Virus record (IMG/VR): IMGVR_UViG_3300046010_009975
Span: 1 to 35,141 of that record
Origin: a virus
Length of the DNA stretch: 35,141 bases
Strand: one strand, 5' to 3'
Shown: in pieces, positions 1,377 to 24,833 of the stretch
How the letters are laid out: every line of letters begins with the position of its first letter
Numbering within the stretch: position 1 is the stretch's first letter
The notes under the pieces: generated by a model
The model's input: the letters and a program-made list of their open reading frames with translations, nothing else
What the model was told of the DNA's origin: nothing
Database searches by the model: none
Made by a program: the position numbers and the translations under genes

Positions 1377-2090
1377 GTGAAGAAATCCCCATATTACTTT
1401 GAAATAAAGGATTTATTAACTCAGTTCGTAACTGCGTTTGATGATATTGTTATAAAGAGATTCAATGTTAACAGAAAGATAGAAGACAGAATTTCAGTAA
1501 GATATCTCTATTCACCTAAACAAAGAGTATTATATGATATTATCAATACTGCTCAAAATATAACATTACCTGCTGTAGCGGTTACTATATCATCTATAGA
1601 AAGAGATAATAACAGAGTGTTTAATAAATTAGAAGGATTTTACTACAGTGATGGTAGTAATAGTAAATCAGCTCATTTGTTATCTCCAGTACCAATTAAT
1701 ATAAACGTAAGCGTTTCTATTATAACAAGATTTCAAACTGATATGGATCAGATATTAAGTAACTTTGTTCCATATAGCAATCCATATGTTGTAATAAGTT
1801 GGAAAGTACCAGCTGAGTTTCAATTACCTACTATTCAAGAAATACGCAGTGAGGTATTATGGGATGGTAATATAACATTGGACTATCCCGTTGATTTAAA
1901 CGGACAACAAAAACCAAGAGTAGTAGCTGATACTACTTTCACAATTAAAGGATGGCTATTTAAAGAACAAACTGTTGCAGTTAACAATATCTACTATATT
2001 GATACTAATTTCTACATAGATGACTTTGCAGAGGTAGTGCCTCCATTATCTTCAAATCCAATAAATGGCATTAGAATCGAATACATTTGA
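1377..2090 (+). CDS. 15: gp15-like tail sheath stabiliser / tail completion protein
   Basis: 237 residues, against 272 in T4 gp15. The order of conserved blocks follows T4 gp15: an N-terminal segment with a DIVIKR-like stretch, a Y-x-S-P-K-Q-R block where T4 has YASKEH, a strand block LPAVAVTISSIERD, a P-V-P-I-N block, and a long motif around ITRFQTDMDQILSNFVPYSNPY that parallels the T4 motif IFTRYEDDMFQIVEQILPYFQP. T4 gp15 forms a hexamer that caps the tail tube and sheath and binds the neck. The start is GTG at 1377, one base after the previous stop; no Shine-Dalgarno is visible. Its last 26 nt overlap the next gene. Confidence 0.82.
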   Translation: MKKSPYYFEIKDLLTQFVTAFDDIVIKRFNVNRKIEDRISVRYLYSPKQRVLYDIINTAQNITLPAVAVTISSIERDNNRVFNKLEGFYYSDGSNSKSAHLLSPVPININVSVSIITRFQTDMDQILSNFVPYSNPYVVISWKVPAEFQLPTIQEIRSEVLWDGNITLDYPVDLNGQQKPRVVADTTFTIKGWLFKEQTVAVNNIYYIDTNFYIDDFAEVVPPLSSNPINGIRIEYI

Positions 2091-5000
2091 AATTTCTGGA
2101 TCCCCGACCGTAACAAATTTATATTACGCTGGGGTTTTAGCAGATAATAATATCCAGACAATTCCTGGATTTTTACCTACCGTAACAATTTATGGTACGC
2201 GATTTAATTTGCTAGATGGTATTTTACTATCATCAGGTAATTTAGATTTATTTTCTTCTTTAACTGCAATAGATATACAAGGTAAGGAACCGCAAACTAT
2301 AGTTGGTCAACTATTATCTGCGTATGAAGTTATAAACGAAAACATTGTAACATTCACTTTACCTAATCTTACACCTAACTTTAGATACCCAAACGGTCTA
2401 CTTGCATTTGTACCATTTAATAAAGCAGGTATAGCAACTACAGCGTATTCATACAATGAATTAGGTAACAGGACTAATACGTTTTTAATTTATGGTAGTT
2501 TACCTTCTGTAACACCTACACCTACAAGAACACCTACCCCCACACCTACAAGAACACCTACACCTACAGTTACACCTACAAGAACACCTACCCCATCAAT
2601 TACACCTACAGAGACACCTTCAGAGACTGCTACACCTTCTGTAACACCTTCTATAACTGAAACAGTTTCGATTACACCATCTGAAACACCATCTGTTACA
2701 CCGTCATTAACTCCTTCAGAATCTTTAACACCTTCCATTACACCGTCATTAACTCCATCAATAACACCAACACTAACAGAGACACCATCGTTAACACCGT
2801 CAATTTCAGAGACAGTTTCATTATCACCATCCATAACACCTACTGTAACTCCTACTTTAACTCCATCCCATACAACCACACCATCTTTAACCCCATCTCT
2901 TACACCGTCAGTAACCCCATCTTTATCTGAAACACCTTCGTTAACTCCATCTGAGACACCATCTATTACAGTTTCAATATCACCTTCATTTACCCCATCT
3001 GTAACTTCGTCGATATCTGAAACACCATCATTAACCCCAAGTATTACACCAACAGTTTCAATATCGTTAACCCCTTCAATTACACCGTCAGTTACACCTA
3101 CTGAATCTATAACACCTTCTGAATCCCCTACAGTTACCCCTTCAATAACACCATCAATAACATCTTCACCATCTTTAACACCATCTATAACATCTACACC
3201 TTCTGTATCACCGTCATTACTAATTTCACCTTCAGTATCACCATCTTTAACTCCAACTGAAAGCTCTACACCATCAGTAACTCCTTCCTTATCTGAGACA
3301 CCGTCAGTAACTCCGTCAATAACACCTACAGAATCAGTTACCCCTTCTCTAACTCCAAGTGAAACACCTACCACAACACCTTCAGAATCAATAACACCTT
3401 CTATTTCAGTATCAGTCACACCATCAGTTACAGAAACACCATCTCTTACACCTACCATAACCCCATCGGTGACATCTTCAGTAACACCATCAGAGACACC
3501 ATCAGTTACACCTACCCTAACCGAAACACCATCATTAACTCCATCAGTAACATCTTCAATTACTCCTTCAGTTACTCCTACAGAGTCTGAAACCCCTTCC
3601 GTTACACCATCTTTATCACCTTCAGTTACTCCTACATTAACTGAGACACCTTCAGTAACACCATCAGTAACAGAGACACCATCATTAACACCATCCGTAA
3701 CCCCGTCAGAAACACCTACTACCACACCATCCGAATCAGTTACACCTTCTGTAACATCATCATTATCTCCATCAGTAACACCTTCTGTTACCGAAACACC
3801 ATCAGAAACTCCTTCAGTGACACCTTCAGCAACCCCTTCAGTGACACCGTCATTGACACCTTCTGAGTCTATAACACCATCCATCACACCTTCACTTACA
3901 CCCACTCAATCACTAACACCTTCACTTACACCCACTTTAACAACATCTATAACACCTTCTAGAACACCATCTGAAACACCAACACCTTCCGCAACACCTT
4001 CTATCACCCCATCTCAATCTATAACACCGTCAAGAACACCATCTCTCACCCCTACTCCTTCTTCCTCACCAGTAATAAACCAGTTATTCGTGTGGGGACG
4101 TAATGCAAATGGTGAGTTAGGGTTAGATAATATAGCTAATAGATCATCACCGGTACAAGTAGGCGCGTTGACTGATTGGACTACTATAGCTCAAAATAGT
4201 ACAACGACCGGTGAAGGGTTCACGACCGCTATAAGAGTAGGATCGTTATACGGTTGGGGGTATAATTTTTACGGTCAATTAGGTCTCGGTGATAGGGTAA
4301 ACATATCCTCGCCGGTACAGGTTGGTGCATTGACTACATGGTCTAAAATAGCAGGGGGTCAGAGTCATACATTAGCAATCAAGACTGATGGTACATTATG
4401 GGCATGGGGTAGAAATACAACCGGTCAGTTAGGGTTTGCTCCGCAGGTCTCATCACCAGTTCAAGTTGGGGCTTTAACATCGTGGCTAAATATTGCTGGA
4501 GGTAGATCTCACTCTGCTGCAGTAAAAAATGACGGTACGTTATGGACGTTTGGACGTAATAATTTTGGGCAATTAGGTTTAGGTGATAGAACGGATAGAA
4601 ATTCTCCTAATCAAGTTGGAGCTTTAACTGATTGGTTAAACGTAGCATGTGGTGAGTATCACACAGCTGCTATTAAATCTGATGGTACTATATGGGCCTG
4701 GGGAGCTGATGGTTTCGGTCAGCTAGGTCAAAATACTATAGTATATCGATCATCACCTATTCAAGTCGGTGCTTTAGCTACATGGAGCAAAATAACTACA
4801 GGTTCTAGATTTACAGTTGCAACTAAGACTGATGGTACTTTATGGTCATGGGGTAGAAATGAGGCAGGTCAGCTTGGACTCGGTAATAGAGTTAACGTAT
4901 CATCGCCAAATCAAGTCGGGGCCTTAACAACATGGCTTAATATAGCCGCAGGTTATGCGCATATGTTAGCAACATTGACTGATAAATCTTTATATGCTTG

Positions 5001-6234
5001 GGGTAATAACGGTAATGGAAATCTAGGTATAAACAATACAATATATCGATCATCGCCAGTGCAAATAGGCTCAGCTACAGGTTGGACAGTAATAGCTGGT
5101 GGTGGACAATCATCGAAAGCTATCTTTGATCCACCACCACCATCACCGTCACCAACCCCGTCAGCGTCAACGCCAGCACCGGCTTTATATGCTATGGGAC
5201 AGAATTTTTACGGCCAATTAGGCGTTAATTCAAATCTTTCCTCTGATGTTTCCTCACCAACTCAAGTTGGAGCTTTAACCAATTGGAGCTATATTAATGC
5301 AGGAAATAACTCAGCTATATCTATTAAAGCTGATGGTTCCTTATGGACGTGGGGTCTTAATACACAAGGTCAGTTAGGTCTAAATGATAGAACCAGTCGT
5401 TCTTCACCAGTACAAGTCGGTGCTTTAACTAATTGGAGAAACGCTAAAGGAGGATCTTTACATATTATATCCACAAAAACTGATGGAACATTATGGGCTT
5501 GGGGCTATAACGGTGACGGGGCACTTGGTTTAAATGACACTATATATCGTTCATCACCGGTTCAAGTAGGAGCTTTAACTAATTGGTTATTAGCTTCTGC
5601 TGGAGGATATAGTTCAGCTGCAATAAAAAATGATGGTACATTATGGTCCTGGGGTTTTAATAATTTCGGGCAGTTAGGGTTAGGTGATAATGTTAACAGA
5701 TCATCACCAGTACAAGTAGGAGGGCTAACTACATGGAGTAACGTAACTGTAGGAGATAGAACAATGTTAGCAATTAAAACTGATGGTACAATATGGGCCT
5801 GGGGTAGAGGTGCTATAGGTAGTTTAGGTCTAAATAATGGAGTTGATCAATCATCTCCTGTACAAATAGGTGCATTAACAACGTGGTTAAAAATTGCTGC
5901 TGGAGGATATAGTTCAGCTGCAATAAAAAATGATGGTACATTATGGTCCTGGGGTTATAATGATCAAGGACAGTTAGGTTTAGGAAACACAACATGGCGT
6001 TCTTCCCCGGTGCAAGTTGGTGCAGGTACTGATTGGTCTGAGATAGTGTTAGGTAGTAAAGGTATGTTAGCAAAGAAAACTGGTGGTTCTATATGGGCTT
6101 GGGGTAGAAATGCTAATGGCCAATTAGGTCAAAATAATATAATTGGTCGATCATCTCCGGTACAAATAGGCGCACTAACTTCCTGGATAAATATAGCAGC
6201 TGGAAGATATTTTAATATAATGACTCTATCTTAA
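2065..6234 (+). CDS. Giant Ser/Thr/Pro-repeat and RCC1 double-propeller protein, probable receptor-binding or adhesion protein
   Basis: 1389 residues in four parts. Residues 1-146 are a beta-rich N-terminal domain, possibly the virion attachment part. Residues about 147-669 are an extremely biased T-P-S repeat with T-P-S-V/I/L/E variants and almost no charge except Glu and a few Arg. Residues about 673-1018 hold seven RCC1-type repeats (W-G-x-N-x-x-G-Q-L-G-L ... SSPVQVG). A second Pro-rich linker (about 1022-1040) leads to another seven RCC1 repeats ending at the C-terminus. RCC1 repeats form seven-bladed beta-propellers, so the protein should end in two complete propellers held on a long extended stalk. 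The ATG lies inside the end of gp15, a 26-nt overlap that suggests translational coupling. A role in host or particle binding is inferred from architecture and tail-gene context. Confidence 0.85.
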   Translation: MALESNTFEISGSPTVTNLYYAGVLADNNIQTIPGFLPTVTIYGTRFNLLDGILLSSGNLDLFSSLTAIDIQGKEPQTIVGQLLSAYEVINENIVTFTLPNLTPNFRYPNGLLAFVPFNKAGIATTAYSYNELGNRTNTFLIYGSLPSVTPTPTRTPTPTPTRTPTPTVTPTRTPTPSITPTETPSETATPSVTPSITETVSITPSETPSVTPSLTPSESLTPSITPSLTPSITPTLTETPSLTPSISETVSLSPSITPTVTPTLTPSHTTTPSLTPSLTPSVTPSLSETPSLTPSETPSITVSISPSFTPSVTSSISETPSLTPSITPTVSISLTPSITPSVTPTESITPSESPTVTPSITPSITSSPSLTPSITSTPSVSPSLLISPSVSPSLTPTESSTPSVTPSLSETPSVTPSITPTESVTPSLTPSETPTTTPSESITPSISVSVTPSVTETPSLTPTITPSVTSSVTPSETPSVTPTLTETPSLTPSVTSSITPSVTPTESETPSVTPSLSPSVTPTLTETPSVTPSVTETPSLTPSVTPSETPTTTPSESVTPSVTSSLSPSVTPSVTETPSETPSVTPSATPSVTPSLTPSESITPSITPSLTPTQSLTPSLTPTLTTSITPSRTPSETPTPSATPSITPSQSITPSRTPSLTPTPSSSPVINQLFVWGRNANGELGLDNIANRSSPVQVGALTDWTTIAQNSTTTGEGFTTAIRVGSLYGWGYNFYGQLGLGDRVNISSPVQVGALTTWSKIAGGQSHTLAIKTDGTLWAWGRNTTGQLGFAPQVSSPVQVGALTSWLNIAGGRSHSAAVKNDGTLWTFGRNNFGQLGLGDRTDRNSPNQVGALTDWLNVACGEYHTAAIKSDGTIWAWGADGFGQLGQNTIVYRSSPIQVGALATWSKITTGSRFTVATKTDGTLWSWGRNEAGQLGLGNRVNVSSPNQVGALTTWLNIAAGYAHMLATLTDKSLYAWGNNGNGNLGINNTIYRSSPVQIGSATGWTVIAGGGQSSKAIFDPPPPSPSPTPSASTPAPALYAMGQNFYGQLGVNSNLSSDVSSPTQVGALTNWSYINAGNNSAISIKADGSLWTWGLNTQGQLGLNDRTSRSSPVQVGALTNWRNAKGGSLHIISTKTDGTLWAWGYNGDGALGLNDTIYRSSPVQVGALTNWLLASAGGYSSAAIKNDGTLWSWGFNNFGQLGLGDNVNRSSPVQVGGLTTWSNVTVGDRTMLAIKTDGTIWAWGRGAIGSLGLNNGVDQSSPVQIGALTTWLKIAAGGYSSAAIKNDGTLWSWGYNDQGQLGLGNTTWRSSPVQVGAGTDWSEIVLGSKGMLAKKTGGSIWAWGRNANGQLGQNNIIGRSSPVQIGALTSWINIAAGRYFNIMTLS
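2503..4071 (+). repeat. Ser/Thr/Pro low-complexity coding repeat
   Basis: About 1.57 kb of degenerate short DNA repeats coding T-P-S, T-P-T and variants. The codons are mixed (aca/act/acc, cct/cca, tca/tct), so the repeat is conserved at protein level more than at DNA level. The bias also leaves a long stop-free frame on the opposite strand. Confidence 0.95.
5597..5656 (+). repeat. 60-bp direct repeat, copy 1
   Basis: Identical over 60 bases to 5897-5956, exactly 300 bp away. It spans the end of one RCC1 blade and the start of the next. Confidence 0.93.
5897..5956 (+). repeat. 60-bp direct repeat, copy 2
   Basis: The second copy of the 5597-5656 repeat. The 300-bp offset equals two RCC1 blades. 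Confidence 0.93.
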
Positions 6235-10085: not shown

Positions 10086-10432
10086 AAGAAGATCAATTAA
10101 TTAATATCTACGAGTCTATTGTTAATGAAGATGATACGTCTAAAAAAGACATCATTTCTGGTTTATCAAAAATGCATAAACAAATGCAACAACAAATATT
10201 AGATGATAAAAAATTGCAAACTGAAATAGCGCTAGCAGCTGACAATGTTTTTGAAGCTATTAATCAATATAGAGATTTGTTACGTGCAAATCGTAAAGAT
10301 ATAATTCGAATTTTAAGAGATATTGAGAATAAAGGTATAGAAGACGATACACCAGAAGCTGATTTTTATTTCACTATTAAAGGTTTTCACGAAAACGCAA
10401 GTGATTTGCTACACGTAATTAATATTGACTAA
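10082..10432 (+). CDS. Unassigned helical protein with KKxIIxGL motif
   Basis: 116 residues, mostly predicted helix and rich in Asp, Glu, Lys and Gln. The N-terminus contains I9-Y10-E11, then a KKDIISGLSKMHK stretch that lines up with KKNIIAGLELMSN in the two preceding genes, making a three-gene tandem set. The body has no recognised family. The start overlaps the upstream stop by 4 nt. The TAA at its end overlaps the TAG of the convergent 466-aa gene, leaving no room for a terminator between them. Confidence 0.75.
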   Translation: MKEDQLINIYESIVNEDDTSKKDIISGLSKMHKQMQQQILDDKKLQTEIALAADNVFEAINQYRDLLRANRKDIIRILRDIENKGIEDDTPEADFYFTIKGFHENASDLLHVINID

Positions 10433-11829
10433 CCTTGCGTTCGTTCTTTATTTTTTAAAGCAACCATTGCTCTACCTACACCAGTCGCGCAATCTAATAT
10501 AAGTTGTTTATATCGTTTATAAACTTGTGAATCTTTCGATGCCTTAACTGTTGGATTATTAGCTAAAACATCTAACCAGGTATAATCATAAGGGTCTTCT
10601 TCTGTTTGTTTTCCAATTTCACTCGCCTTTTCAATTAAATCCATCATGTCTTTTTTCGTATTACTATCCTGGAATAGTAACATTAATTTTTGCAACATAC
10701 CGAATTGATTTTCGTCTTCTTGATTAGGTGTACGTACATTGATATAAATGTACTGTAAAACTGGATCTAATTTAAGATAGTCTTCTTTATAAATTTTATT
10801 TTTTGGACCTAAACCTATATAAGCTTTTTTAACTTTAAATGAAGTATATGTTTTAAAAGTATCTGCATTCCCTCCACTCACAGCTTGTTGCATTTGCTCT
10901 TCTTCAGTTAACGGTTGATAAACAAAAAGGTGTTTTAAATTTTTAAGCTTAGGTTGAATTTTTAAAATTTCTTCCCAGGTCATCCAATGATCGCCGTGAT
11001 CGTTTGTGGAATCTGTAACCAAATATTTTGCTTCTTTATTACCTGATTTTACTGAAGATTCAGCTACTTGAATTACCATACAGTGCCAATCATCATCTAA
11101 AGGTCTCGTAATGTCATTAACAAAATACATACTTTTTGACACACTACCATAATCCCCAAACCTATATCTGGAGAAATAATTACTAGGTCCAGTAGGGTCT
11201 TGAGATATACACCACTTGTATATATTTTTTCTTTTTGTTTGTGTTTGAATTTTTTTATTAATTATATAACATTGATCTGCGGTAGCTCCAAAAAATATCT
11301 GTAAATCATCTTTATCGTAAATTAAGTTATTCACGCTACTAGTAGTTGAAGTTGCTACTTGTTTTAATCTTTCTTTTTCAGTTGGATCTGGAAATTGATC
11401 TACTATTGCTTCTATATCGTTCCAATTATAATTTCTTATTTCTAAAGGAAAATCATTTAATGCTTTTATTCTTTTTAATTCACTTTCGTATTGTTGTTTT
11501 AATTTTCTTTCTGCAGGGGATAAAGTTTTTTTAGATAAAACTGATTTTAATTTTTCTTGTGATGTTAGACTAGGTAAATAAGGGGCAATTACTACACCCT
11601 CTCTGTCTTTTTCTGGTTTACGACCTTGTGCAATAGCATCTCTTACTTTATCATTTATTTGCTTTGCTTTATTAGGATTTTGTTTTATTAAACCAAATAT
11701 TTTTATTTTATGAGCAATTTGGTCAGGGGTAATGTATGGTCCAGCTTGCGACTTTAAGCGTTTAATTTGTTTTGCATAAAATTCTTTATTGTACAGTTCT
11801 AAAATTAAACTATTATTTGCTTTAATCAT
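10429..11829 (-). CDS. Unassigned 466-aa protein, late-expressed, candidate internal head protein
   Basis: 466 residues, inserted on the opposite strand between plus-strand structural genes. The N-terminus (I9-L10-E11) fits the leader pattern of gp21-processed proteins. Residues 35-160 are Lys-rich and helical. Residues 170-320 contain a compact conserved-looking block: IFFGATADQC (near 178-187), KWCISQ (205-210), NYFSRYRFGD (217-226), YFVNDITRPLDDDWHC (235-250), then H-G-D-H-W-M-T-W. Similar W-C-I-S ... Y-R ... F-V blocks occur, as far as I remember, in uncharacterised proteins of large phages; no activity can be assigned. The Trp/Cys/His pattern would suit an enzyme or binding domain. It has its own exact late promoter. 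Confidence 0.85.
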   Translation of the reverse strand: MIKANNSLILELYNKEFYAKQIKRLKSQAGPYITPDQIAHKIKIFGLIKQNPNKAKQINDKVRDAIAQGRKPEKDREGVVIAPYLPSLTSQEKLKSVLSKKTLSPAERKLKQQYESELKRIKALNDFPLEIRNYNWNDIEAIVDQFPDPTEKERLKQVATSTTSSVNNLIYDKDDLQIFFGATADQCYIINKKIQTQTKRKNIYKWCISQDPTGPSNYFSRYRFGDYGSVSKSMYFVNDITRPLDDDWHCMVIQVAESSVKSGNKEAKYLVTDSTNDHGDHWMTWEEILKIQPKLKNLKHLFVYQPLTEEEQMQQAVSGGNADTFKTYTSFKVKKAYIGLGPKNKIYKEDYLKLDPVLQYIYINVRTPNQEDENQFGMLQKLMLLFQDSNTKKDMMDLIEKASEIGKQTEEDPYDYTWLDVLANNPTVKASKDSQVYKRYKQLILDCATGVGRAMVALKNKERTQG

Positions 11830-15668: not shown

Positions 15669-15692
15669 TCGGCTACAAAAGATTACAAACGA

Positions 15693-15720
15693 AGAGCGGC
15701 TCGAAAGAGCCGCTCTTTTA
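15693..15720 (+). terminator. Strong intrinsic terminator after the capsid gene
   Basis: A perfect 10-bp stem, AGAGCGGCTC (15693-15702) with GAGCCGCTCT (15707-15716), closed by a GAAA tetraloop of the stable GNRA type and followed by a T-rich stretch. It separates the capsid transcript from the convergent queF gene. Confidence 0.93.
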
Positions 15721-15726
15721 TTTTGT

Positions 15727-16677
15727 TTACTGCTTGCTTGTTTTAACGTGTGGACTATAAACGTCCGACAAGTTCAATGACAAACGATAAAGCAGATCTA
15801 TATTAGATGCTCTAACTGGATTGATATCAATACCACCACGTCTAGCATATAGACACATTACAAACAATGCTTCTGGATTAAACTTATCCTGTAAGCGTTT
15901 ATAAATGCATTCACAGATCTCTTCATGAAAGTGACATTCACCTCTAAAAGATACAATGTACTTAAGTAGAGAGACTTTACTAATATGCTTATTTGTCTTG
16001 ATATAGATAAAAACATCGCCCCAATCTGGCTGACTTGTAACACGACAATTGCTCTTAAGAAGAGATGAATGAAAGTATTGACTAACACTTGCTCCATCAG
16101 ATACCTCAATATGATTATCGTCAAGTAACTTAGGCGTCTCTTCATACGTTTCAAATGTTGTACTGTAGAGAGTTTCTTGCGGTATAACATCCTCTAACGT
16201 TTCAAACTGCGACTTACCATAATAATCATGAGCACTAACCTCCGTCTTATCGTAAATGCTTGAAGGTATAAACCCTACCTTAACACCAGTTTCAAGTAAT
16301 TCAGATAAATCAGCACTTGCAATCTTAGTAAAACGATCAATACCTTCCTTAATGTTATTACCCATCTTATACATGTTAAAGCTATTAAAGTAAAGCTTAA
16401 TAGACTTACTCTCAACAATATACTTACTAGTAGCTGGGTAATTAACTTTAACTACACCAGTTACTGGGCATCCATTATTTAAAAGAAAAGAACATTCATA
16501 AGCATTCCAAGTATCAAAACCTACAAAAGGTAGATTATCATCTGCAATGTTTAGATATGTTCTGTTATTCTGTCTCGGTTCAGCAACCAATAAAGTCTTA
16601 TCATAAGTACTTTTGTACTCAGATGTTTTACCGAGATGCTTACTAATATTTGAATTGTCTAATACGTTATTGGCCAT
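15727..16677 (-). CDS. queF: QueF, NADPH-dependent 7-cyano-7-deazaguanine (preQ0) reductase
   Basis: 316 residues, the long two-domain form (E. coli QueF has 282). The catalytic Cys is C211 in LKSNC and the partner Asp D218 in QPDWGD. The FHE motif is at 250-252 and the family tail ARRGGIDINPVRASN is present. The first half holds the substrate and NADPH motif VESKSIKLYFNSFN (88-101). All key residues are intact, so reduction of the preQ0 nitrile to the preQ1 amine is expected. It is the last gene of a tight operon with a DpdA-like transglycosylase and a P-loop protein, so the product is probably used for phage DNA modification, not tRNA. It starts 2 nt after the kinase-like gene's stop. Confidence 0.93.
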   Translation of the reverse strand: MANNVLDNSNISKHLGKTSEYKSTYDKTLLVAEPRQNNRTYLNIADDNLPFVGFDTWNAYECSFLLNNGCPVTGVVKVNYPATSKYIVESKSIKLYFNSFNMYKMGNNIKEGIDRFTKIASADLSELLETGVKVGFIPSSIYDKTEVSAHDYYGKSQFETLEDVIPQETLYSTTFETYEETPKLLDDNHIEVSDGASVSQYFHSSLLKSNCRVTSQPDWGDVFIYIKTNKHISKVSLLKYIVSFRGECHFHEEICECIYKRLQDKFNPEALFVMCLYARRGGIDINPVRASNIDLLYRLSLNLSDVYSPHVKTSKQ

Positions 16678-16679
16678 AG

Positions 16680-17243
16680 TTAAATTGTATATGTATTTGT
16701 TCGTTTTTCAATCTCGTTTTTGATTGTATTATATCTTTCTTCTACAGAACCAGATAGTCTAACAAGATTAGTAAGCTTATAATGATCGATATAAAACTCA
16801 AAAAGCTCTATAACTTTATTTCTGAAGTTCACATCAATACTTCTCACACCATCATCAACTAACGGAATAGAAGGATCAGTATAAAAAATAATATCATACT
16901 TATCTTTCAATTGATCAAATACGTATTCAGCATAATGACCCAACCTATCATCCTTGTTATTTGAATAACAAATATACGTTGTATAAACAAATGCATCTAA
17001 TGCACATCTATCGAATACACACTTCTTATCTTTATTTCTCAAATAATTATCAACATGACTATTGATAGTAATCATCTGAGTAAAGTCACTACCCTTCTCA
17101 TTAATAGCTAGCCCGTACTTATCTTTTAGACTTCTAGTTATTTCTGGTTCAAAATGCCAATCTTTGAAAGACTCATCATCTTTCATCTTATTCAGTAAAG
17201 TACTTTTACCTGAAGATTGTGCACCTGTAAATGTTATAATCAT
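16680..17243 (-). CDS. P-loop nucleotide/nucleoside kinase-like protein (NadR/AAA_28 type)
   Basis: 187 residues. The Walker A motif GAQSSGKST is at residues 6-14. A DR-containing block (VFDRCALDAFVYT, near 96-107) fits the lid and substrate-binding region of NadR-type ribosylnicotinamide kinases and related ATPases. A Walker B-like IIFYTDPSIP lies further on, and an Arg-rich lid segment follows (GVRSIDVNFRNKV). It lies between dpdA-like and queF with gaps of 1 and 2 nt, so it is co-expressed with them. The substrate is unknown. A role in the deazaguanine pathway or in NAD or dNTP supply would be guesswork beyond the operon context. Confidence 0.8.
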   Translation of the reverse strand: MIITFTGAQSSGKSTLLNKMKDDESFKDWHFEPEITRSLKDKYGLAINEKGSDFTQMITINSHVDNYLRNKDKKCVFDRCALDAFVYTTYICYSNNKDDRLGHYAEYVFDQLKDKYDIIFYTDPSIPLVDDGVRSIDVNFRNKVIELFEFYIDHYKLTNLVRLSGSVEERYNTIKNEIEKRTNTYTI

Positions 17244-17244
17244 A

Positions 17245-18051
17245 TTATACTCTCTTTAAGATTTTCTTAAACATATGAACGTTATGATAGATATTATGAG
17301 TCTGCTGTTCTGATACAGCCGTATCAATAATGTCTGCAAGCTTTGTAGTAGGTTTTGTATTTAGACCAAAGTCATGATTATAAAGTAAGCCTTCTATACC
17401 AGCTACAATTGGATTGGATGTATCAACTGAACGGATGTTGTAGATATTCTTATCTACATAATATCTAAATTCCTTTGCTAAAGAACATCCGAGTAGATGA
17501 TGCGGCTTAGACCAATTCCAAATACCATCTTGAATAAGATCGTTAATAAAGTTTTGACGTCCTGTGCACCAACGCTCTAACTTTGACTTACCTCTACCAG
17601 TTACAATATAGTATGAAAAGTCAAAACTGATAGCTATATAGTCAGCGTATTCACTCATATACTTGTAACAGTCAACAAGTTCATCATATGTCTTACCTTG
17701 AATAGCACCAATTCTCATACCAGGTAAGTCAGCATACTTAGTAGTAAAGTCTGAAAAGTTCTTTACTGTATCATAACCTTGCTCAAGAACATCTGGTACG
17801 ATATAGAAGGTTGGTTTTAGCTTTTTAACATAGTCTGCAAACTTATCATTATCAAAAGCTTTACCTAATTCAAAGATACTATTATCAAGCAACACTTGAC
17901 GACCTGATTCTAAACACTTTACGAAATGATCGTAATACTCAGGCTTTGTATCAAATAAATGAACGAGTGCGTAATCATAATCATTATACGCTACTGATTC
18001 GCTTAACAGGCTAATAGGTGTTTCATGTGAAACTAAAATAGTATGAGACAT
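17245..18051 (-). CDS. dpdA: DpdA-like DNA 7-deazaguanine transglycosylase (TGT paralogue)
   Basis: 268 residues, compact for the TGT superfamily. Visible motifs on a probable TIM barrel are LLDNSIFELG (D56), FYIVPDVLE (D87), RIGAIQGKTYDE (Q118-G119), ADYIAISFDF, KPHHLLGCSL (183-191) and IRSVDTSNP (D210). The Asp-Asp and A-I-Q-G arrangement recalls tRNA-guanine transglycosylase and the phage DpdA proteins that exchange guanine in DNA for a 7-deazaguanine base. The tRNA-binding zinc site of TGT is not visible, which suits a DNA enzyme. Clustering with queF supports the call. A host-like promoter ends 6 nt before the ATG. Confidence 0.78.
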   Translation of the reverse strand: MSHTILVSHETPISLLSESVAYNDYDYALVHLFDTKPEYYDHFVKCLESGRQVLLDNSIFELGKAFDNDKFADYVKKLKPTFYIVPDVLEQGYDTVKNFSDFTTKYADLPGMRIGAIQGKTYDELVDCYKYMSEYADYIAISFDFSYYIVTGRGKSKLERWCTGRQNFINDLIQDGIWNWSKPHHLLGCSLAKEFRYYVDKNIYNIRSVDTSNPIVAGIEGLLYNHDFGLNTKPTTKLADIIDTAVSEQQTHNIYHNVHMFKKILKRV

Positions 18052-21457: not shown

Positions 21458-22513
21458 TTACAACGTGAACTCATTGAAATCTTTATCGTTTAGCTTATTA
21501 TCTACACCCTTAACATAGCTAGAGATTTCAGTCTCTTGAGGAGCTACTTGGACCTTCTTACTATCGTAGAAACTATCAAGCCAACCAGCAAGAGGATTAC
21601 TCTTTGCATCATAAAGCTTCTTTAAACCGAGTGATGTTAAGCGATTATTAGCTAACCATTCAACATATTGCTTTAATGATTCGGGAGTTAGTCCAACTAA
21701 GCTACCTTTGCTAAAGAGATAATCAGCCCAATCCTTTTCTGCTTCTACTGCAGTACGGTAAAATTCGTAAATCTTACCTTCTTGCTTTTTGAACGTAGAC
21801 TGGAAACCTTCATCAGGATTATCCTTAAGATACTTGAGAATGTTTTGCGTAATAGCTACATGCAAGTTTTCATCTCTAGAGATCAAATTGATGATCTTAG
21901 AATTACCTTCCATCTTACCCCGGTAACCGAAGTAGAATGAGCAAGCAAATGAAACGTAGAATGTAACACCTTCCATGATCTGAGTTGCAATAATTGCATC
22001 AAGAATTTGCTCTTTGATATCCTTACTACTACTCATTAATGCATCATAACGACTTGTCATGAACTCTGCACGCTTAACTATTTCCTTATCTTCTAAAATA
22101 GAATCAAAGAACTTAGTTGCATCTGGGTAAACGTTCTGCAGTATGTATGTATATGAATTACTATGAATAGTTTCGAAGAAACTCCAAACATTCATACAAA
22201 TCTCCAACTCTGGATTACTTACATGTTCCATCATCTGATGAATAGAACGCGATAGCATCGAATCACCCATTGTTTGAAACTTAAGATTACTGTCGAATAC
22301 AAAACGTTCTTCTTCAGTAAGCTTCTTATAGTCAGATAAATCCTTAGTAAGATTTACCTCTTGTGGACGCCAGAAGAAGTTAAGCTGTTGATCGTACAGT
22401 TCATAGAACTTTGGATACTTAAGACGATCATAACGCTGTATTGCTAAGTCTTTGCCTAAGAACAAAGGCTGCTTGAGAGAGTCTACATTAGTTTTGTTTA
22501 GTACTGTTTTCAT
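21458..22513 (-). CDS. nrdB: Ribonucleotide reductase class Ia, small subunit NrdB
   Basis: 351 residues with the ATG at 22513. Residues for the di-iron site and radical are present: D84 (TMGDSM), E114 and H117 (FFETIHS), tyrosyl-radical Y121 (SNSYTY), the EGVTFYVSFACSF block and the ISRDENLH block. The C-terminal tail FNEFTL should dock NrdA. The product reduces ribonucleotides with NrdA to make dNTPs for phage replication. An in-frame upstream start would lie inside nrdA, encode a non-family extension, and is rejected. Only 1 nt separates it from the nrdA stop. Confidence 0.97.
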   Translation of the reverse strand: MKTVLNKTNVDSLKQPLFLGKDLAIQRYDRLKYPKFYELYDQQLNFFWRPQEVNLTKDLSDYKKLTEEERFVFDSNLKFQTMGDSMLSRSIHQMMEHVSNPELEICMNVWSFFETIHSNSYTYILQNVYPDATKFFDSILEDKEIVKRAEFMTSRYDALMSSSKDIKEQILDAIIATQIMEGVTFYVSFACSFYFGYRGKMEGNSKIINLISRDENLHVAITQNILKYLKDNPDEGFQSTFKKQEGKIYEFYRTAVEAEKDWADYLFSKGSLVGLTPESLKQYVEWLANNRLTSLGLKKLYDAKSNPLAGWLDSFYDSKKVQVAPQETEISSYVKGVDNKLNDKDFNEFTL

Positions 22514-22514
22514 G

Positions 22515-24818
22515 TTATAAGGTACACGCACCGCCAGCACAACCAGAATCATCAACGACTTCTTCTTGTTTTGCTTGTTCAGTAGTGTTTGTTGTTATAT
22601 TTAAAGCCGATTGCGTATCACCGTCGTACGTATTTGTATAGTACAACGTCTTGACCCCGTATTTGTATGCTGTAAGAATATCTTTGATAAGATCATTCTG
22701 CGATACTTTTCTATCAGGGTACTTGCTGACATTATAGTATAGATTTGCTGATATACTCATATCAACAAACTTCTGTAAAGCAGCAACTACCTTAAGATAT
22801 CCTTCATTACCGGGCATTTCGAACGCAAGTGTATAATCTTTCCCATACTTATCTACACCTGGCACGATAGAAGGAACAATACCAGCCTTAGAACGTTTTG
22901 CAGTAATAAGCGATCGCGGTGGTTCGATACCATTTGTTGACGATTGAATAACTGCAGATGATTCACATGGCATTAAAGCTGTAAGAGTACTATTACGCAA
23001 CCCATGTTTACGTATTTTAGCTCTTAATGCTTCCCAATCCTTATGTAGCTTTTCAGTTACAAATGTATCTACCTCTTTCTTATATGTATCAATAGGTAAG
23101 ATACCACGACTGAATTTTGTATAACCAAACTTTTCACACTGTCCTTTCGTAGCAGCTAATTCAGCTGATGCATCTAACAAATAATAACTTACCGATTCCA
23201 TTAACTTAGCTGCAATATTAGGCGCTTTCTTATCCCAATACTTCACCCCATTTTGAGCAAATATAGCTGCTAAATTAGTGATACCAATACCTAAGCTACG
23301 ACGTTTCTTAGCAAAGTTTGCAGCAGCAGGAGCAAAATAGTTTTGATGGTCAATAAGCTCATCTAACATACGAACAATAATATCGCATGTCTGTTCCATA
23401 TCTTCATCATCTTTAATCTCTAATAGATTAACTGCTGCGAGAATACATACACCAATCTCTCCATTAACATCTTCAATATTATAGATAGGCTTTAATGGAT
23501 GTGTGACTTCAACACAAAGGTTAGTTGTATCTACTTGCTCAGTCCACGAACCGTGAGTATTAACATGATCAGCATTGAACACATACATTCTACCAGTTTC
23601 AAAACGCTCCTTAGAAAATAGCATGAATAACTCACGAGCATTCATTGTCTTCTTATACTTTAACTTTGGATTCTTTTCTGCTTTTTCATATAGCTCTTTA
23701 AACCCAGGCATACCGAAGTTATTCCAAAGTTCTGGGGCTTCATGATACGAAAACAAAGTAACGTTTTGATTCTTTAAGAAACGCTCATAGAACAATCCAT
23801 CGAATGCAATGCAATAGTCAAGCTTACGAACTCGATTATCATCTGTACCTGCATTGTTCTTTAAGACTAAAATCTCTTCTATATCTTTATGAAAGTATGC
23901 AACGTTAGCAGTTGCACTACCACCACGAATACCATTCTGATGGCAACTCTTTACTGCTGACTCATACATCTTTAGATACGGAATAGGTCCTGTATGAACT
24001 ATAGTACCATTTTGAACTGGACTATTTGTAGCACGAATTCTACTAAAGTTAATTCCGATACCATAACGACTTGCAGTAGCAAATCCAATAGCATCATTAC
24101 TAGCAAAAATAGAACGTAACGTATCATCGACGGTAATAAGCATGCAAGATGCATAACTCTTTAACGTAGTACGTACCCCTGCCATTAACGGTGTAGGTAG
24201 ATTGATCTTATGCTTACTGAAAGCATTGTATGCTTTTCTGATATAGTCAAGTCTCTTTTCTTTATAATCTTTAAAAAGAGTCATTGCGATGAGAATATAT
24301 GCAAACTGAGGAGTTTCAAAAATAGTCTTTGAAACTCTATCCTGTACAAGATACTTTTCACATAACTGCTTTATGCCAGCATACGCAAAATCGAAATCTC
24401 GATTATGATCGATATAATCATTCAGCTTATCAAAGTCCTTTTTATCATACCAATTTAAGATCTCTGGATCATATACCTTATTCTGTTCGATATTTTGTTT
24501 TACAAAATCATATAGCCTGGGTGCATCTTTACCACCCCAAACTTCTTTACGAAGCTGATAGTTAAGAAGTCTAGATGCGACTTGTTGATATTGAGGAGTC
24601 TGTTCAGATATAAGACCAGCTGCAGCTTCAATTAGCGTATTGTGAATATCTTTCGAAGTTATACCATCAAAAAATTGTAAATGCGCGTTCATAGCTACTT
24701 GCTCGAATGATACGCCTTTTACGTCTTCGCAAGCCCATTGAAGGATTTTATTAATTTTATCTGGTGAGAATTTCTCTTTCTTACCTGAACGTTTTACGAT
24801 TGTAATTTCTTTCGACAT
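22515..24818 (-). CDS. nrdA: Ribonucleotide reductase class Ia, large subunit NrdA
   Basis: 767 residues from the ATG at 24818. In order: an N-terminal ATP-cone (IVKRSGKKEKFSPDKI ...) for allosteric activity control, active-site C225 (YASCML), the N433-x-C435-x-E437 triad (TNLCVEV), the GGSATANVAYFHKDIEEIL region, and a C-terminal CAGGAC pair that passes electrons to the active site, spaced as in E. coli. No intein or split is seen. A second ATG at 24830 is 3 nt after a TATAAT box (24834-24839), which would put the transcription start beyond it; I prefer 24818 for that reason. The two starts differ by four residues. Confidence 0.96.
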   Translation of the reverse strand: MSKEITIVKRSGKKEKFSPDKINKILQWACEDVKGVSFEQVAMNAHLQFFDGITSKDIHNTLIEAAAGLISEQTPQYQQVASRLLNYQLRKEVWGGKDAPRLYDFVKQNIEQNKVYDPEILNWYDKKDFDKLNDYIDHNRDFDFAYAGIKQLCEKYLVQDRVSKTIFETPQFAYILIAMTLFKDYKEKRLDYIRKAYNAFSKHKINLPTPLMAGVRTTLKSYASCMLITVDDTLRSIFASNDAIGFATASRYGIGINFSRIRATNSPVQNGTIVHTGPIPYLKMYESAVKSCHQNGIRGGSATANVAYFHKDIEEILVLKNNAGTDDNRVRKLDYCIAFDGLFYERFLKNQNVTLFSYHEAPELWNNFGMPGFKELYEKAEKNPKLKYKKTMNARELFMLFSKERFETGRMYVFNADHVNTHGSWTEQVDTTNLCVEVTHPLKPIYNIEDVNGEIGVCILAAVNLLEIKDDEDMEQTCDIIVRMLDELIDHQNYFAPAAANFAKKRRSLGIGITNLAAIFAQNGVKYWDKKAPNIAAKLMESVSYYLLDASAELAATKGQCEKFGYTKFSRGILPIDTYKKEVDTFVTEKLHKDWEALRAKIRKHGLRNSTLTALMPCESSAVIQSSTNGIEPPRSLITAKRSKAGIVPSIVPGVDKYGKDYTLAFEMPGNEGYLKVVAALQKFVDMSISANLYYNVSKYPDRKVSQNDLIKDILTAYKYGVKTLYYTNTYDGDTQSALNITTNTTEQAKQEEVVDDSGCAGGACTL

Positions 24819-24833
24819 TTTAGATACCATAAT

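What the first reader, a model, noticed from the sequence alone, without database searches (positions are those of the whole stretch)
15727..18051. Probable 7-deazaguanine DNA modification operon in a T4-like phage
QueF has its catalytic Cys, Asp and His, and the DpdA-like protein shows the TGT-type Asp and A-I-Q-G motifs without a visible tRNA zinc site. They are packed with gaps of 1 and 2 nt behind a single promoter. QueF makes preQ1 from preQ0, so the phage may insert preQ1 or a derivative in its DNA to escape restriction. No queC, queD, queE or folE is in the window; the precursor may come from the host or from genes elsewhere.
Basis: partly seen in the sequence, partly recalled or inferred. 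Interest (0 to 1): 0.85.

Follow-up and report, generated by a model that had tools for sequence, protein, structure and literature searches.

The report
Phage guanine-swap operon with dedicated kinase
A T4-like aquatic phage carries a three-gene operon that very probably replaces guanine in its DNA with a modified guanine (preQ1), and the overlooked middle gene, a nucleotide kinase that accompanies this swap enzyme in every relative checked, suggests the swap may happen on free nucleotides before the DNA is copied.

Summary
In detail: three genes on the minus strand, 1 and 2 nt apart. QueF (15727-16677) is a bimodular nitrile reductase with its catalytic residues. 17245-18051 is a DpdA: its AlphaFold model (pLDDT 92.6) has TGT as its five best PDB matches and DpdA as the sixth, and it is 45-48% identical to proteins of Campylobacter phage CP220 (DNA reported to carry dADG) and Flavobacterium phage immuto. 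Precursor genes lie elsewhere: all six relative contigs of 98 kb or more carry queC and queD. 16680-17243 is a deoxynucleoside/nucleotide-kinase-fold protein that accompanies this DpdA in 75/75 environmental loci, 18/18 isolated-phage records and 3/3 MAG loci. Distant small DpdAs sit beside P-loop kinases of other families; 0/12 DpdA1/DpdA2 neighbourhoods have one. Best explanation: a DpdA3-type module making preQ1-containing DNA, in which the kinase charges the modified deoxynucleotide for polymerisation (about 0.5). Main rival: exchange on finished DNA, with the kinase in a supporting role (about 0.4). It is a new member of a known kind; the kinase link makes the open question of complete guanine replacement directly testable.

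The parts
17245..18051 (-). Small DpdA (TGT-fold guanine transglycosylase, DpdA3-type lineage), 268 aa; putative nucleophile D210, base-binding D56, D87, Q118
   Evidence: AF2 pLDDT 92.6; Foldseek PDB ranks 1-5 TGT, rank 6 DpdA 7ui4; 45-48% identity to CP220 and immuto proteins; invariant motifs. Residue roles are assigned by motif analogy to TGT, not by a structural superposition read residue by residue.
16680..17243 (-). P-loop kinase of the deoxynucleoside / dNMP / NadR-type superfamily (AAA_28), 187 aa; constant partner of this DpdA
   Evidence: Pfam AAA_28 2.7e-14; AF2 pLDDT 89, top PDB folds deoxynucleoside kinases, NadR, TMP kinases; linkage in 75/75 loci; invariant P-loop, E-x-T-R, DR and DGxRS motifs
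15727..16677 (-). Bimodular QueF (preQ0 to preQ1 nitrile reductase), 316 aa
   Evidence: Pfam QueF_N and QueF, NCBIfam TIGR03138 7e-71 but below its cut-off; catalytic residues conserved
15691..15718 (.). Bidirectional terminator-like hairpin between convergent capsid gene and the operon end
   Evidence: 12-pair stem, 7 G-C pairs, T-rich tail

Best explanation
The operon is a DpdA3-type 7-deazaguanine module that gives phage DNA in which guanine is replaced by preQ1 or a simple derivative. Step 1: QueF reduces preQ0 (made by phage queC/D/E genes elsewhere in the genome, or by the host) to preQ1. Step 2: the small DpdA swaps guanine for preQ1. Step 3: the middle-gene kinase is a dedicated part that phosphorylates the modified deoxynucleoside or deoxynucleotide so that it reaches the triphosphate and is polymerised; the exchange would then act on free (d)G nucleotides before replication, which would explain how related phages replace all their G. 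Shown here: identity and fold of the three proteins, their constant linkage, precursor genes in relatives. Inferred: the modified base (about 0.9); the substrate of DpdA and of the kinase (about 0.5).
For: DpdA fold and motifs; QueF; QueC/QueD/QueE in large relatives. Kinase present with DpdA in 73/75 loci with >=4 kb downstream, the other two about 7 kb away, in 18/18 isolated-phage records with a close DpdA and 3/3 MAG loci. Kinase fold is deoxynucleoside kinase / NadR / TMP kinase. Six large genomes also carry a separate kinase paralogue, so this one is not the only such kinase. Distant small DpdAs adjoin P-loop kinases of other families (phiST, MA9V-3, Youna2, L261), while 0/12 DpdA1/DpdA2 controls do and DpdA1 sits beside clamp and polymerase. 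Nucleotide-level enzymes recur nearby in relatives.
Against: All TGT/DpdA enzymes whose substrate is known to me act on polymers. From memory, Crippen 2019 found no dADG phosphates in infected cells, and Cui 2023 infers post-replicative insertion. No dGTP-removing enzyme is universal in the large genomes (HD, PRA-PH, MazG, dGTP diphosphohydrolase all patchy). The kinase's substrate is unknown and it could be a general dNMP kinase. L262-L264 have only a degenerate P-loop. Linkage alone does not prove a shared pathway.
Confidence: 0.5

Rival explanations
1. Same module and same product, but DpdA swaps the base in finished or nascent DNA, as proposed for DpdA1 and DpdA2. The kinase only supports replication or salvage, for example rephosphorylating (d)GMP or other dNMPs.
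For: TGT-family precedent; published inference for DpdA generally (Hutinet 2019, PMC6884629; Cui 2023 from memory). GMP reductase and xanthine/guanine-type phosphoribosyltransferase in relatives would suit recycling of released guanine.
Against: Does not explain why a kinase is tied to this DpdA lineage only, is replaced by unrelated kinases in distant lineages, and is absent beside DpdA1/2, nor why a second kinase paralogue is also kept.
Confidence: 0.4
2. The operon boosts queuosine precursors for host or phage tRNA, not DNA modification.
For: QueF is a queuosine-pathway enzyme; Hutinet 2019 raises this for phages that have preQ0 genes but no DpdA.
Against: The transglycosylase lacks the tRNA-enzyme zinc site and belongs to the lineage of CP220, whose DNA carries dADG; no tRNA gene in the window; no bacterial TGT relative at sequence level.
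Confidence: 0.04
3. The kinase phosphorylates the modified base in DNA, like the 5-hydroxymethyluracil DNA kinases of other phages, as a step to a hypermodified guanine.
For: DNA-base kinases of P-loop type exist in phages (general knowledge).
Against: CP220 has the kinase but its reported base is plain ADG, which needs no base phosphorylation. Structural hits are nucleoside and nucleotide kinases. Detected kinase homologues in the phage collection are in Campylobacter, Flavobacterium, Streptomyces, Rhizobium and Rhodococcus phages only.
Confidence: 0.03

Closest known systems
Campylobacter firehammerviruses CP220/CPt10 (dADG DNA; the DpdA there is DpdA3 by memory of Cui 2023)
   Same: DpdA 45-47% identical with the same kinase family directly next to it; QueC, QueD, QueE, FolE in the genome.
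   Different: CP220 has no QueF homologue found, so its product is ADG rather than preQ1; it has an HD + P-loop protein upstream of DpdA.
Flavobacterium phage immuto cluster (MW353176)
   Same: DpdA, kinase and QueF in the same order, 48%, 31% and 48% identical.
   Different: immuto has a PurN-like formyltransferase between DpdA and kinase, and queD, queE, folE beside them; the window operon lacks the formyltransferase.
DpdA1 phages (9g, Queuovirinae) and DpdA2 phages (KVP40, nt-1)
   Same: TGT-fold DpdA with preQ0 genes, QueF in KVP40.
   Different: No kinase next to DpdA in 12/12 checked; DpdA1 usually beside clamp and polymerase; no significant profile match to the window DpdA.
Deoxynucleoside kinases, thymidylate kinases, NadR ribosylnicotinamide kinase
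   Same: Fold and catalytic motifs of the middle protein.
   Different: Lacks NadR's adenylyltransferase domain; only AAA_28 passes a curated cut-off; substrate unknown.

Membership tests
DpdA3 (small DpdA of CP220/immuto type) | Full-length sequence homology to the CP220 protein | tested here: met
   45-48% identity over 96-97%. That this subfamily is the published DpdA3 is from memory; the paper is not held.
DpdA3 (small DpdA of CP220/immuto type) | TGT fold with catalytic aspartates and base-recognition motifs | tested here: met
   Foldseek TGT and DpdA on top; D56, D87, D210 invariant down to 24% identity.
DpdA3 (small DpdA of CP220/immuto type) | Complete replacement of dG in the genome | not testable with these tools
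   Needs LC-MS of virion DNA.
DpdA3 (small DpdA of CP220/immuto type) | preQ0 pathway in the phage genome | tested here: inconclusive
   Not in the 35 kb fragment; present in all large relatives.
tRNA-guanine transglycosylase (TGT) | Cys3/His zinc site and C-terminal tRNA-binding part | tested here: not met
   268-aa barrel, a single conserved Cys (C189) and no zinc set.
DpdA1 (9g type) | Sequence homology to 9g DpdA | tested here: not met
   hhalign probability 1.5%.
DpdA2 (KVP40/nt-1 type) | Sequence homology to KVP40.0122 | tested here: not met
   hhalign probability 0.2%.
QueF (bimodular) | QueF_N + QueF domains and catalytic Cys/Asp/His/Glu | tested here: met
QueF (bimodular) | NCBIfam TIGR03138 equivalog score cut-off | tested here: not met
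   239 bits against 293.45: a diverged phage QueF.
QueF (bimodular) | Reduces preQ0 to preQ1 with NADPH | not testable with these tools
   Needs an enzyme assay.
NadR (NMN adenylyltransferase / NR kinase) | Adenylyltransferase domain plus kinase domain | tested here: not met
   187 aa, kinase-like domain only.
Deoxynucleoside / dNMP kinase superfamily | Fold, P-loop, DR motif, lid arginine | tested here: met
Deoxynucleoside / dNMP kinase superfamily | Phosphorylates a (modified) deoxynucleoside or deoxynucleotide | not testable with these tools
   Needs an enzyme assay.

The most novel reading that the evidence does not exclude
The small DpdA lineage is a TGT-fold enzyme that exchanges the base of free deoxyguanine nucleotides, and its obligate kinase charges the product. 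These phages would then build DNA from dPreQ1TP (or dADG-TP) instead of modifying finished DNA: a pre-replicative route to complete guanine replacement.
Probability: 0.4. Interest if true: 0.85.

Novelty: new member of a known kind. Interest (0 to 1): 0.58.

Why it matters
How some phages replace all guanines with 7-deazaguanines is unsettled. [quoted passage not shown] The constant kinase partner, replaced by unrelated kinases in distant lineages and absent beside DpdA1/2, is a testable argument for a nucleotide-level step. If true, a TGT-family enzyme would work on free nucleotides, and DpdA plus kinase could make modified dNTPs for DNA synthesis.

Tried and rejected
A sequence-profile search for a solved relative of the DpdA found none; only fold comparison showed TGT/DpdA. 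Profile comparison of the window DpdA with 9g, KVP40 and phiFN37 DpdAs was not significant. A universal dGTP-depleting partner was looked for (HD, PRA-PH, MazG, dGTP diphosphohydrolase) and rejected as patchy. Isoelectric point of the DpdAs (mean 5.6, against a 6.0 median for proteins of the genomes) was judged uninformative. A direct phosphoribosyltransferase + ribonucleotide reductase route was considered and set aside, since it leaves DpdA without a role. The Youna2 DpdA gave no relatives in viral contigs. No Rfam element in the window. Crippen 2019 and Cui 2023 are not held; what is said of their contents rests on memory and on papers that cite them.

Full report
The finding checks out at the sequence level. 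On the minus strand lie three tightly packed genes: 17245-18051 (268 aa), 16680-17243 (187 aa) and 15727-16677 (316 aa), with gaps of 1 and 2 nt. A strong hairpin at 15691-15718 separates the operon end from the convergent gp23 capsid gene. The claimed single promoter is not supported beyond chance by a consensus scan. The window is itself a whole IMG/VR record, a fragment of 35141 bases, with T4-like structural genes.

QueF. The last gene has both halves of a bimodular QueF, with the catalytic Cys, Asp, His and Glu. It scores below the NCBIfam equivalog cut-off, so preQ0 to preQ1 reduction is the best inference rather than proof. Its nearest annotated relatives are phage QueFs.

DpdA. The first gene passes no curated Pfam or NCBIfam cut-off. 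Its AlphaFold model is confident (pLDDT 92.6), and the best PDB matches are five TGT entries followed by the DpdA structure 7ui4. Active-site motifs are invariant in 31 homologues, and the aspartates hold down to about 24% identity in phiST, MA9V-3 and Youna2. There is no zinc site, and no significant profile match to DpdA1 or DpdA2. It is 45-48% identical to the proteins of Campylobacter phages CP220/CPt10, whose DNA is reported to carry dADG, and of Flavobacterium phage immuto. From memory this lineage is the DpdA3 of Cui 2023, associated with complete guanine replacement.

Precursor genes. None is in the window. QueC and QueD are found in all six IMG/VR relatives of 98 kb or more, and in CP220 and immuto. 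QueE is in all seven large genomes compared (five IMG/VR, CP220, immuto), FolE in five of the seven. A deep relative in a metagenome-assembled genome has QueD, FolE, DpdA, a PurN-like protein, kinase and QueF in a row, with the start of a QueC-like gene about 1.6 kb on (L276; QueD, FolE and QueC there were read by eye from the sequence, not by a family search).

The overlooked middle gene. 16680-17243 encodes a P-loop protein (Pfam AAA_28) whose model (pLDDT 89) matches deoxynucleoside kinases, NadR and thymidylate kinases. It is as constant as the DpdA itself. Of 97 distinct DpdA loci, 75 have at least 4 kb downstream; 73 of these show both kinase and QueF, and the two exceptions carry the kinase about 7 kb away. 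Starting from kinases, 74 of 74 loci with enough upstream sequence have the DpdA; these were the best-scoring relatives of a DpdA-linked set, so this number is biased upward. All 18 isolated-phage records with a close DpdA have it, as do 3 of 3 loci in bacterial MAG contigs, probably binned phage sequence. In seven large genomes only 12 orthologue groups (in a filtered reciprocal-best-hit comparison) are shared by all; QueC, QueE, DpdA and this kinase are among them. Five IMG/VR genomes and CP220 also hold a second, separate kinase paralogue, and a tree divides the two sets (97/88), with long branches for immuto and CP220 that call for caution.

Independent recruitment. Distant small DpdAs have P-loop kinases of other families next to them: Cellulophaga phiST and Chryseobacterium MA9V-3 (AAA_18), Weizmannia Youna2 (thymidylate-kinase-like, remotely related to the window kinase), and L261, where the kinase is fused to a QueD-like domain. 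In L262, and by the motif scan L263 and L264, the corresponding P-loop is degenerate. Twelve DpdA1/DpdA2 neighbourhoods used as controls have no P-loop ORF of 110-380 aa within 2.6 kb; there the DpdA1 usually sits next to the sliding clamp and DNA polymerase.

Other neighbours in relatives point to purine nucleotide handling: a PurN-like formyltransferase in 26 of 75 loci, GMP-reductase-like genes in all five large IMG/VR genomes, two of them in the operon, xanthine/guanine-type phosphoribosyltransferases in six of seven large genomes (the CP220 one weak), and once each beside the DpdA a dATP/dGTP diphosphohydrolase and a LOG-family hydrolase. GMP reductase and the phosphoribosyltransferase would suit disposal of released guanine under either model.

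Mechanism. What is shown is the identity and linkage of the parts. That phage DNA carries preQ1 or a derivative is a strong inference (about 0.9). For where the exchange happens I favour the nucleotide level, because a kinase tied to this DpdA lineage, and replaced by unrelated kinases in distant lineages, has no obvious use if the base is swapped in finished DNA. I hold this at about 0.5. TGT enzymes are otherwise polymer enzymes, published work (memory) leans to post-replicative insertion and did not detect dADG phosphates, and no dGTP-removing enzyme is universal.

Novelty. The operon is a new member of a known kind, closest to the immuto cluster without its formyltransferase. I found no paper in the held library that discusses the kinase link, but the two most relevant papers are not held, so the novelty of that link is not established.

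Noticed in passing
window 2065-6234 (+): 1389-aa protein with at least 14 RCC1 repeats (PF00415, E 7e-142) inside a T4-like structural gene cluster; eukaryote-like repeats, role unknown.
   Followed up: no
window 21458-24830 (-): Class Ia ribonucleotide reductase small and large subunits on the same strand as the operon.
   Followed up: no
window 10429-11829 (-): 466-aa ORF on the minus strand inside the plus-strand head/tail gene cluster, with no Pfam or PHROG match.
   Followed up: no
L261:4082-4996, L262:2489-3457: QueD-like domain fused to a P-loop kinase domain, near small DpdAs of the phiST type.
   Followed up: partly
L025:12325-12672, L031:11363-11710, L036:11772-12107: Conserved 111-115 aa protein next to the kinase in 20 of 97 DpdA loci, one copy weakly similar to DUF1599 'nucleotide modification associated domain 1'.
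   Followed up: partly
G001:21866-22900, G004:1055-2062, G005:49813-50868; L025:11369-12328: GMP-reductase-like genes in all five large relatives; they may dispose of guanine released by the exchange, or lower the G nucleotide pool.
   Followed up: partly
L046:6868-7899 (CP220 CPT_0055): HD phosphohydrolase domain fused to an AAA_33 P-loop domain, directly upstream of the CP220 DpdA.
   Followed up: no
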